From Lachnospiraceae bacterium (GTDB lineage Bacteria; Bacillota; Clostridia; Lachnospirales; Lachnospiraceae): a stretch of 46,220 nucleotides of DNA. Each line of letters opens with the position of its first letter. Positions within the stretch are counted from its first letter, which is position 1. The translations under genes and the position numbers were made by a program. Below the pieces are notes generated by a model that worked only from the letters and a program-made list of their open reading frames with translations, searched no databases and was not told the DNA's origin. This document shows positions 5,231 to 7,220 of the stretch, one piece after another. The stretch is taken from the NCBI GenBank assembly GCA_028706005.1, contig JAQWCI010000003.1:1-46220 (forward strand), given 5' to 3'.

Positions 5231-5881
5231 TCATGTGATAACAGCGTTTAGATTTGCCCTTTCAAAATCTGGTTGCGCACTGATAAAGAACTTCTTTACA
5301 GTTTTCCAGGAATCATCTATAAAAGTGTGCGGTAAAATTTCGTTCTCGGCATCATCAAAGTATGTCAAGCTCATTATAATGTGGTTCATTCCAGTGTCCG
5401 GGAACTTTTTCCGCGCCGCATCTATAAGATCCTGGGGCAAAATACTTGCATATTTCATCATACAATATAGGTCAAAAAAATCCTTCTTTGCCCCTCTGCC
5501 ACCTATTGCTGCCAATTTCATGGCTCCGATATCCAGAACTGAGGCAATGTTCAGTTTGGGGAATTCTTCCCCGTTAACAAATGGGCTTACCATTTGTTTT
5601 GGGTAATAGAAAAAGCTGACCTGTACATCATTAACTGATAAGTCACAGGTGTCATCGGTGTTTTGCAAGATACAAACATGGGCGGAAATATCATGCAGTT
5701 TATCTATAATCATTTGGCTGCTAAAATGTTCCGGCACAAAGAAATCAAAATCCACGGACTGCCTGGTTCCTATCTGCAAAGCCAGGCCTGTTCCACCCGC
5801 CATATAATACTGAAAATCCATAGCATACGTGATCTTCTCCAATAAGCTGATCCGATCCGAATCCAACACTTCCAAATGCAT
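5231..5881 (-). CDS. AbiEii/AbiGii-type nucleotidyltransferase, putative toxin
   Basis: Protein of 216 aa with the core of the AbiEii nucleotidyltransferase family (DUF1814, DNA-polymerase-beta-like fold). It has GGTGLALQIGTRQSVDFDFF at residues 29-48, where the GG and the D-x-D pair are the nucleotide- and metal-binding motif. A later AAIGGRGAKKDFFDLY segment matches the conserved K-x-x-DxxDL region. Members modify tRNA or other targets with NTPs and act as toxins in abortive-infection or toxin-antitoxin systems (MenT/AbiEii); that activity is inferred here. The gene follows the RHH/DUF6922 gene by 11 bases, a common pairing for short members of this family. Length is normal for the short subgroup and no motif residue is missing. 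Confidence 0.8.
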   Translation of the reverse strand: MHLEVLDSDRISLLEKITYAMDFQYYMAGGTGLALQIGTRQSVDFDFFVPEHFSSQMIIDKLHDISAHVCILQNTDDTCDLSVNDVQVSFFYYPKQMVSPFVNGEEFPKLNIASVLDIGAMKLAAIGGRGAKKDFFDLYCMMKYASILPQDLIDAARKKFPDTGMNHIIMSLTYFDDAENEILPHTFIDDSWKTVKKFFISAQPDFERANLNAVIT

Positions 5882-5892
5882 ATCGACACCCC

Positions 5893-6411
5893 TTAACGCC
5901 TGAAAGAACTTCCCGTTTTTTCTTTGTTAATGTAATAGGCCATATCTTTCCTGTCTATACTGTACTTTTGAGACAGGTAATTAGCGCTTACGTCATCAAA
6001 GCCGCGACTTTTCCTGGCCACATCCATGATTTCTTTGTCTGAATATGTTTTATGTAACCAGTACATTTCTTTGGCGTCACCTAGCATATACAGTCTCGGG
6101 ATGATATACCGCGCATTCTCATGAATATCCAGTTTATCAAATGATGTGTCCCAAAAAAGGACCTTGAACTCCTGCGGAATCCTTAGATTTTCTTTGTAAT
6201 GAAGCAGGCGCCTCATTCTTTTCTGTTGTTCTTTATTGATCATATCAGTAAGAGCTGTTGTAATAACTGCATTCATGCTCTGGTTTTGCCTGGCTGCTAT
6301 GGCCTGTAATTCTCTTTTTGACCCCTTGGGCAGAATTAGCGAGAATCGGTCGTAATGTTCATTTGTATATGAATTTTTGTATGCGACCGCGTCAAAACTT
6401 TCAGGTTTCAT
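5893..6411 (-). CDS. RHH-like N-terminus plus DUF6922-like domain, putative antitoxin
   Basis: Protein of 172 aa upstream of the nucleotidyltransferase. Residues about 20-60 (DRFSLILPKGSKRELQAIAARQNQSMNAVITTALTDMI) look like a ribbon-helix-helix DNA-binding domain of the Arc/MetJ type. Residues about 85-160 (FWDTSFDKLDIHENARYIIPRLYMLG...) resemble the DUF6922 domain usually found as a separate small protein before AbiEii-type nucleotidyltransferases. I infer an antitoxin that also represses its own promoter, as palindromes cover the region just upstream. The ATG has AAGGGGGA upstream. The domain fusion is unusual in my experience. Pfam assignment of the C-terminal half is from memory and should be treated as probable. 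Confidence 0.7.
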   Translation of the reverse strand: MKPESFDAVAYKNSYTNEHYDRFSLILPKGSKRELQAIAARQNQSMNAVITTALTDMINKEQQKRMRRLLHYKENLRIPQEFKVLFWDTSFDKLDIHENARYIIPRLYMLGDAKEMYWLHKTYSDKEIMDVARKSRGFDDVSANYLSQKYSIDRKDMAYYINKEKTGSSFRR

Positions 6412-6435
6412 AAGTGTTGTCCCCCTTATATTGAA

Positions 6436-6468
6436 ATTATATCACATCTTGAGTAAGATGCGTCGCAT
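6436..6468 (-). promoter_or_regulatory. Toxin-antitoxin promoter with two palindromes
   Basis: On the minus strand an extended -10 element TGATATAAT (TATAAT at 6441-6436) lies 25 bases before the antitoxin ATG. Immediately upstream are CATCTT-GAGT-AAGATG (6445-6460) and ATGCG-T-CGCAT (6458-6468), two partly overlapping inverted repeats where a -35 would be. This fits an autoregulatory RHH operator. The gap 6469-6651 shows no gene I can support. Confidence 0.6.
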
Positions 6469-6651
6469 TACAGCCTTATGTTATCTCATTCATTGTCTGT
6501 TGAAGAGTTTCGCTGACATCAACGCCCTGGATATCCAGTCCTTCTGCCTTGTAATACTGAACATCAGCGATATTCCAGAAGCTCCTGGCCAATTCTCTGA
6601 TGTACAGACGAGTTCCAGATAAGAATGAAGTGCCGCCAGGATATGTCTTAC

Positions 6652-6669
6652 ATGTTGACATGTCAACAT
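6652..6669. promoter_or_regulatory. 18-bp perfect palindrome, probable MarR operator
   Basis: ATGTTGACATGTCAACAT is a perfect 18-bp palindrome about 100 bases before the marR-like gene. It contains TTGACA (6655-6660), which can act as a -35 with a weak TACTCT -10 seventeen bases later (6678-6683). A repressor bound here would block that promoter. MarR proteins typically bind palindromes of this size, so autoregulation is a reasonable inference. Confidence 0.6.
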
Positions 6670-6770: not shown

Positions 6771-7220
6771 ATGAGCTGGCAATTTAAAGAGTTTTGCACC
6801 AGGGTCACAGAAATCAATTCTACGATCAATGAAATCAAGATAAAAGAGGCTCGAAAAATGGGGCTCAAAGGGTCGCATGTCATGCTGTTGCATGAACTTG
6901 ACAAGCACAGTGAGGGCATGACCGGAGCTGATATCGCTGCAATCCTGTGTCTGGACAAAGCTGCGGTATCACGATCGATCGCCGGGCTTGAAGAGAAGCA
7001 CCTGGTAAGCATTGATGATTCTCAATCGGGAAAGCGGTATCGTGCAGTTATCAAGTTGACACCTGAGGGAAGAAAAGCCGCAAAAATGCTGGAGAACAAG
7101 ATCGACAGTGCGGTCGGAGCAGGCGCAGTTGCTGAGTTTTCTGACGAGCAGAGACAAAAGTTCTACTATGTACTATCTCAGATTTCACAGAATCTGAAGG
7201 CATACTCTGAAAGTCTGTAG
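6771..7220 (+). CDS. MarR-family transcriptional regulator
   Basis: Small winged-helix regulator (149 aa). The DNA-binding core reads LKGSHVMLLHELDKHSEGMTGADIAAILCLDKAAVSRSIAGLEEKHLVSIDDSQSGKRYRAVIKLTPEGRKAA. That is the MarR helix-turn-helix (about residues 50-70) and wing (about 80-95, with the D-x-R-like wing replaced by SGKRYR). Flanking helices would form the dimer interface. A ribosome binding site (GGAGCGAC) precedes the ATG. The gene is followed at 36 bases by a DegV gene and then a membrane protein, probably one operon. The palindrome at 6652-6669 suggests autoregulation. The ligand is unknown. Confidence 0.9.
   Translation: MSWQFKEFCTRVTEINSTINEIKIKEARKMGLKGSHVMLLHELDKHSEGMTGADIAAILCLDKAAVSRSIAGLEEKHLVSIDDSQSGKRYRAVIKLTPEGRKAAKMLENKIDSAVGAGAVAEFSDEQRQKFYYVLSQISQNLKAYSESL

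What the first reader, a model, noticed from the sequence alone, without database searches (positions are those of the whole stretch)
5231..6468. AbiEii-type toxin paired with a putative RHH-DUF6922 fusion antitoxin
Seen: an 11-base gap joins a nucleotidyltransferase with the GGT...DFDFF motif to an upstream 172-aa protein whose N-terminus looks like a ribbon-helix-helix domain and whose C-terminus resembles DUF6922. Known: AbiEii partners are usually wHTH (AbiEi) proteins, and short nucleotidyltransferases are often preceded by a stand-alone DUF6922 protein. Inference: a DNA-binding domain has been added, making the antitoxin an autorepressor, consistent with the palindromes on its promoter.
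Basis: partly seen in the sequence, partly recalled or inferred. Interest (0 to 1): 0.6.

Follow-up and report, generated by a model that had tools for sequence, protein, structure and literature searches.

The report
NTase toxin with RHH-headed DUF6922 antitoxin
A two-gene, probably toxin-antitoxin unit in a clostridial genome in which a usually free-standing antitoxin (DUF6922) has acquired a phage-repressor-type DNA-binding head, so that it can probably also switch off its own promoter; it is a rare new variant of a widespread but little-described module.

Summary
A 172-aa protein (5893-6411, -) sits 11 nt upstream of an AbiEii/DUF1814 nucleotidyltransferase (5231-5881, -). Its C-terminal half is DUF6922 (E 1e-14). 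Its N-terminal half is an Arc/Mnt-type ribbon-helix-helix (RHH) domain: sub-threshold in Pfam, but 29.2 bits against an Mnt-type profile, where 20,000 shuffles reach at most 9.9. Both halves are under purifying selection (dN/dS 0.13, 0.11) against one sister species with the same locus. I read 129 loci with DUF6922-like frames: in Bacillota nearly all are free-standing ~100-aa proteins beside an NTase; many Bacteroidota ones carry an XRE/HigA-type head; only the window and its sister carry RHH. In the NTase tree the RHH pair is nested (100/99) among pairs with free-standing DUF6922, so the head was most likely gained. Two palindromes (6445-6468), centres one helical turn apart, abut an extended -10 box and are kept in the sister. 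Most likely: a MenT/AbiEii-like NTase toxin neutralised by DUF6922, with RHH giving autorepression. Toxicity, binding and interaction are untested; structure predictions settled neither the RHH fold nor the interface. New variant of a known kind.

The parts
5231..5881 (-). Nucleotidyltransferase, 216 aa, AbiEii/DUF1814 family; predicted toxin
   Evidence: Pfam AbiEii E 3.8e-14; PADLOC AbiEii E 9e-7; dN/dS 0.10 against the sister species
5744..5764 (-). R40-Q-S42-V-D44-F-D46: NTase motif 2 with the Arg and Ser that correspond to R76 and S78 (phosphorylation site) of TglT/MenT3
   Evidence: R, S, D, D invariant in alignment A6; TglT residues from PMC7205606
5471..5518 (-). K122 and KKDFFD (132-137): motifs 3 and 4 of DUF1814 NTases
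   Evidence: K122, K132, K133, D134, D137 invariant in A6
5893..6411 (-). Predicted antitoxin, 172 aa, RHH-DUF6922 fusion
   Evidence: 95% identical copy in L003/G021
6232..6354 (-). RHH core (residues about 20-60, YDRFSLILPKGSKRELQAIAARQNQSMNAVITTALTDMIN)
   Evidence: Mnt-type profile 29.2 bits vs 9.9 best of 20,000 shuffles; RHH homologues L238-L255
6019..6165 (-). DUF6922 domain (residues 83-131); predicted neutralising half
   Evidence: Pfam PF21956 E 1.2e-14
5882..5903 (-). 11-nt intergenic gap and TAAGGGG ribosome-binding site overlapping the antitoxin stop codon: the toxin is probably translationally coupled
   Evidence: sequence
6436..6444 (-). Extended -10 box TGaTATAAT of the operon
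   Evidence: sequence; no good -35 hexamer at 16-18 nt
6445..6468 (-). Composite operator candidate: ATGCGaCGCAT (6458-6468) and CATCTTactcAAGATG (6445-6460), centres 10.5 bp apart, directly upstream of the -10 box
   Evidence: only exact site in the 2.4-Mb genome

Best explanation
A two-gene toxin-antitoxin operon. The downstream gene makes a DUF1814/AbiEii-type nucleotidyltransferase toxin that, by analogy with MenT, adds nucleotides to tRNA or another RNA and stops translation (inferred). The upstream gene makes the antitoxin. Its C-terminal DUF6922 domain neutralises the NTase by contact, perhaps by driving phosphorylation of the conserved Ser42 as MenA does with MenT (inferred). Its N-terminal Arc/Mnt-type RHH domain dimerises and binds the two palindromes next to the -10 box, so that the antitoxin represses its own operon (inferred from anatomy). 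The RHH head was added in this lineage to an antitoxin that is free-standing in nearly all Bacillota relatives (supported by the tree); Bacteroidota carry an XRE/HigA-type head at the same place.
For: Domains. Gene order, gap and overlapping ribosome-binding site. Conserved association: most loci with DUF6922-like frames have an AbiEii-like NTase beside them (the tree holds 44 free-standing upstream, 25 free-standing downstream, 7 XRE-headed, 2 with an unknown head and 2 RHH-headed pairs). RHH present only in the window and its sister. Nesting of the RHH pair among free-standing pairs. Free-standing versions of each half in the same bacterial family: L237 DUF6922 39% identical with an NTase 42% identical, and L238 etc. 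for RHH. XRE heads over the Pfam cut-off (HTH_3), HigA as structural match of that head and MenT1/MenAT1 as match of the NTase. Palindromes kept in the sister, with the centre base changed without loss of symmetry. Purifying selection on both halves. Precedents: AbiEi has a DNA-binding N-domain and an antitoxic C-domain and autorepresses through inverted repeats (PMC3985639; PMC7319586); HicB is fused to RHH or to XRE heads (PMC2701414).
Against: RHH is below all Pfam cut-offs, and the AlphaFold model of the antitoxin has low confidence and no strand, although RHH strands form only in the dimer. No complex could be predicted for the window pair; the tethered homologous pair had pTM 0.56, so the interface is undecided. 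The palindromes alone are only mildly unlikely (1.5% of shuffles). The third carboxylate (motif 2a) is Ser89 here, as in many Bacillota relatives; in TglT the E146Q change at this site only weakened toxicity (PMC7205606). No toxicity or binding data were found for any DUF6922 pair (no paper in the held library).
Confidence: 0.72

Rival explanations
1. The pair is a TA system, but the RHH head does not autorepress: it serves only to dimerise the antitoxin (raising its affinity for the toxin), or it binds a host or element promoter elsewhere.
For: Binding at the palindromes is not shown; palindromes of this size are not very rare in one promoter. Free-standing RHH relatives in the family have no known target.
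Against: Symmetric, conserved, helically phased palindromes lie exactly at the promoter of its own operon, and the composite site has no other exact copy in the genome. RHH and XRE antitoxins generally autorepress (established knowledge).
Confidence: 0.15
2. The NTase is not a toxin but an RNA- or protein-modifying enzyme, and the DUF6922 protein is its regulatory or substrate-binding subunit.
For: No toxicity test of any DUF6922-linked NTase was found. The motif 2a acid is Ser in the window and many Bacillota relatives. The partner can be on either side of the NTase. The pair sits at the same chromosomal place in two species.
Against: Patchy distribution (2 of 61 genomes in the genus; 3 of 391 in the class), DUF6922 pairs on plasmids, tandem modules (L009) and HigA-like heads all fit TA systems. 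TglT tolerated loss of the motif 2a acid (PMC7205606).
Confidence: 0.12
3. The fusion is an assembly or annotation artefact, or a decaying chance read-through.
For: The RHH half is below curated cut-offs; only two genomes have it.
Against: Two separately assembled genomes, 92% identical at this locus, keep one continuous frame and a dN/dS of about 0.12 in both halves.
Confidence: 0.01

Closest known systems
AbiEi/AbiEii (type IV TA, Streptococcus agalactiae; PMC3985639)
   Same: Bicistronic, antitoxin first; NTase toxin of the same Pfam family; antitoxin with an N-terminal DNA-binding and a C-terminal antitoxic domain; inverted repeats in the promoter
   Different: AbiEi is COG5340 with a winged-helix head; here RHH + DUF6922, no AbiEi Pfam match
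MenAT1/MenAT3 (TakA-TglT) of Mycobacterium tuberculosis (PMC10435456, PMC7205606, PMC11375011)
   Same: NTase fold (best PDB match of the homologous NTase model is MenT1) and RxSxDxD, K and KD motifs, including the Ser phosphorylated in the presence of MenA
   Different: No detected relation of DUF6922 to MenA antitoxins; motif 2a acid is Ser
XRE(HTH_3)-DUF6922 + AbiEii pairs of Bacteroidota (L005, L015 and others; no name found in the literature held here)
   Same: DUF6922 half, DNA-binding N-terminal head, NTase directly downstream
   Different: Head is a HigA-like XRE domain; separate clade in the NTase tree
HicB antitoxins (PMC2701414)
   Same: One non-DNA-binding neutralising domain carrying either an RHH or an XRE head in different lineages
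   Different: Unrelated neutralising domain and toxin (HicA RNase)
Arc/Mnt RHH repressors of phages
   Same: Sequence of the N-terminal half
   Different: Here fused to DUF6922 beside an NTase

Membership tests
AbiEii / DUF1814 nucleotidyltransferase | Pfam PF08843 match above cut-off | tested here: met
   53.6 vs 22.5 bits
AbiEii / DUF1814 nucleotidyltransferase | Motifs 1, 2, 3, 4 (GGT; DxD; K; KDxxD) | tested here: met
   Invariant in A6
AbiEii / DUF1814 nucleotidyltransferase | Acidic residue of motif 2a (h[DE]h); conserved but not invariant in the family (PMC7205606) | tested here: not met
   VQVS89FF; Ser also in many Bacillota relatives, Asp in Bacteroidota ones. E146Q of TglT stayed toxic, attenuated (PMC7205606), so it is not decisive for membership
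AbiE type IV TA system | AbiEi (COG5340) winged-helix antitoxin as partner | tested here: not met
   Pfam and NCBIfam give DUF6922 and weak RHH matches, no AbiEi
AbiE type IV TA system | Toxin and antitoxin do not bind each other | not testable with these tools
   needs co-purification
MenAT | MenA-family antitoxin | tested here: not met
   DUF6922 profile finds no PDB antitoxin by sequence; no Pfam match other than DUF6922 and weak RHH
MenAT | Arg and Ser/Thr before the DxD motif (RxSxDxD) | tested here: met
   R40-Q-S42-V-D44-F-D46; invariant in A6
DUF6922 (PF21956) | Pfam match above cut-off | tested here: met
   53.9 vs 27 bits
Arc/Mnt RHH fold | Sequence profile | tested here: met
   Mnt-type HMM 29.2 bits vs 9.9 best shuffle; but Pfam Arc sub-threshold (13.7 vs 20.4 bits)
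Arc/Mnt RHH fold | Strand-helix-helix in the structure | tested here: inconclusive
   Helices at 32-41 and 46-75, strand region below pLDDT 50, monomer only
Autoregulated TA operon | Operator palindromes at the promoter | tested here: met
Autoregulated TA operon | Toxicity, neutralisation, repression | not testable with these tools
   bench assays needed

The most novel reading that the evidence does not exclude
DUF6922 defines a large, so far undescribed class of antitoxin for AbiEii/MenT-type nucleotidyltransferase toxins, which works as a bare neutraliser in most bacteria and has gained different DNA-binding heads independently (XRE in Bacteroidota, RHH here, perhaps an unknown third head in L042/L043), turning an unregulated pair into an autoregulated one; neutralisation may act through phosphorylation of the conserved Ser in RxSxDxD.
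Probability: 0.5. Interest if true: 0.55.

Novelty: new variant of a known kind. Interest (0 to 1): 0.42.

Why it matters
It offers a natural before-and-after pair (L237: bare DUF6922; window: RHH-DUF6922, with NTases 42% identical) for asking what a DNA-binding head adds to an antitoxin. It also points to DUF6922 as a widespread, apparently uncharacterised antitoxin family: 63 of 399 sampled Bacillota genomes and 14 of 148 Bacteroidota-side genomes carry it.

Tried and rejected
AlphaFold of the antitoxin with 12 sequences: mean pLDDT 58, so its Foldseek matches are meaningless. AlphaFold of a tethered homologous pair (L015, its two stop codons read through as a linker; the window's genes are in different frames, so its own pair could not be done this way): domains confident, pTM 0.56, so no claim about the interface. 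Search for further RHH-DUF6922 fusions in viral contigs, phages, plasmids, genome contigs and nearly 2,000 genomes: none besides the sister. The long open frames of some other DUF6922 genes (L065, L077, L092, L112, L124) show no RHH match and are probably upstream-start artefacts. An RHH gene split from a free-standing DUF6922 gene was sought upstream of ten close relatives and not found. Weak PDB sequence matches of DUF6922 (PdaC, histone H4) look like chance. No paper on DUF6922 in the library. The 61-aa ORF upstream of the promoter (6476-6661) is not a third operon gene but a remnant of a flavodoxin-like gene.

Full report
What is there. The window lies on contig C56 of a 2.4-Mb clostridial genome. 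Two genes on the - strand, 5893-6411 (172 aa) and 5231-5881 (216 aa), are separated by 11 nt; the toxin's ribosome-binding site TAAGGGG overlaps the antitoxin's stop codon. The second gene is an AbiEii/DUF1814 nucleotidyltransferase (PADLOC). The first has DUF6922 at residues 83-131.

Is the N-terminus RHH? Pfam gives only sub-threshold RHH families. Other support is stronger. tblastn of the single protein against phages returns Mnt-like regulators over residues 14-65 at E 4e-3. A profile made of phage Mnt-type proteins (loci found with an alignment that included the window, so not wholly independent) scores the window at 29.2 bits, the best of 20,000 shuffles 9.9. And 397 genomes of the same family hold many free-standing 62-66-aa RHH-type proteins about 30-40% identical to residues 2-68. 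The structure prediction did not help: low confidence, helices where RHH helices belong, no strand. I take RHH as very likely on sequence, not shown by structure.

How common is the fusion? DUF6922 is over its cut-off in 63 of 399 Bacillota genomes and 14 of 148 genomes drawn from the phylum of a Flavobacteriaceae locus, but only 3 of 391 in the window's class and 2 of 392 in its order. I read the loci. In Bacillota the protein is free-standing, about 90-120 aa, directly before or after an AbiEii-like NTase. In Bacteroidota it is free-standing, or carries an XRE head (HTH_3 over cut-off), or an unknown 70-residue head (L042, L043). Of 129 loci with a DUF6922-like frame (some of them overlapping copies of one place), an RHH profile hits that frame only in the window and in its sister copy. 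No RHH-DUF6922 was found in plasmids or viral contigs. The only other carrier is G021 = L003 (95% identical), at the same chromosomal place between marR and hflK.

Direction of change. In a tree of 80 NTases the window and its sister group with L237, whose partner is a bare DUF6922 of 95 aa (support 100/99), and these three lie in a set of 14 with 12 bare partners (100/99). XRE-headed pairs form one separate clade (100/99). No RHH gene lies just upstream of ten bare relatives. So the simplest history is one gain of RHH here and one gain of XRE in Bacteroidota; gain rather than repeated loss is inferred by parsimony.

Promoter. An extended -10 box TGaTATAAT (6436-6444) is preceded by two palindromes that overlap by 3 nt, ATGCGaCGCAT and CATCTTactcAAGATG, with centres 10.5 bp apart (one helical turn), a geometry that would suit two RHH dimers side by side (inference from known RHH repressors). 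Both are kept in the sister species; the one change in the first hits its central base (A to G) and keeps the symmetry. The 24-nt composite site has no other exact copy in the genome; the next best have 3 mismatches. Shuffles of the promoter yield two such palindromes in 1.5% of cases.

Function. Both halves of the antitoxin evolve under constraint (dN/dS 0.13 and 0.11), as does the NTase (0.10). The NTase keeps motifs 1-4 and the RxSxDxD string (R40, S42, D44, D46), whose Ser corresponds to S78 of TglT/MenT3, phosphorylated in the presence of its antitoxin (PMC7205606; auto-phosphorylation in PMC11375011). The motif 2a acid is Ser89, as in many Bacillota relatives; in TglT, E146Q only weakened toxicity (PMC7205606). 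A model of a homologous pair finds MenT1 and the MenAT1 complex as best solved matches of the NTase, and HigA as those of the XRE head. So an RNA-modifying toxin neutralised by DUF6922 is the best reading. Toxicity, neutralisation, contact and repression are inferred, not shown.

Compared with what is known. The plan, a DNA-binding head plus an antitoxic C-domain encoded before an NTase, is that of AbiEi-AbiEii, which autorepresses through inverted repeats (PMC3985639; PMC7319586), but the parts are not AbiEi. A neutralising domain with RHH in some lineages and XRE in others has a precedent in HicB (PMC2701414). It works like AbiE/MenAT; by its antitoxin it is a member of neither. This is a new variant of a known kind; what is fresh is the RHH head on DUF6922 and the recognition of DUF6922 as a general partner of these NTases.

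Noticed in passing
window 6485-6592 (-); L003 2634-2936 (+): Remnant of a flavodoxin_2/azoreductase-like gene upstream of the TA operon; relatives in the genus have about 190-200-aa open frames (L262 and others). The sister keeps a longer remnant.
   Followed up: partly
window 6653-6668: Perfect 16-nt palindrome TGTTGACATGTCAACA between the marR gene (6771-7220) and the remnant, identical in the sister: probably the MarR operator of a former marR-reductase pair.
   Followed up: no
window 5893-6580 vs L003: Synonymous divergence from the sister is far lower in the antitoxin (0.19) than in the NTase (0.53) or HflC (0.91), and the promoter is nearly identical: local recombination or extra constraint.
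   Followed up: no
L046 1450-2034: DUF6922 fused to a C-terminal UPF0175 domain (both over Pfam cut-off) with no NTase detected nearby.
   Followed up: no
L042 1276-1779; L043 1378-1881: DUF6922 with an unrecognised 70-residue N-terminal head (VVHWKRF...NNYLSKKK), possibly a third DNA-binding head.
   Followed up: no
L009 2692-5064: Two DUF6922-NTase modules in tandem, one XRE-headed and one bare.
   Followed up: no
L033 921-1145 (-): On the Aquifex plasmid ece1 a CopG-like RHH gene lies divergently beside a DUF6922-like/NTase pair: a possible unfused counterpart.
   Followed up: no
L237, about 120 nt upstream of the bare antitoxin: Strongly structured stretch with several short hairpins just before the bare DUF6922 gene: a repeat element or an RNA-level control.
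   Followed up: no
NTases of many Bacillota DUF6922 pairs: The motif 2a acidic residue of the NTase is Ser in the window and many Bacillota relatives but Asp in the Bacteroidota XRE-headed clade.
   Followed up: partly
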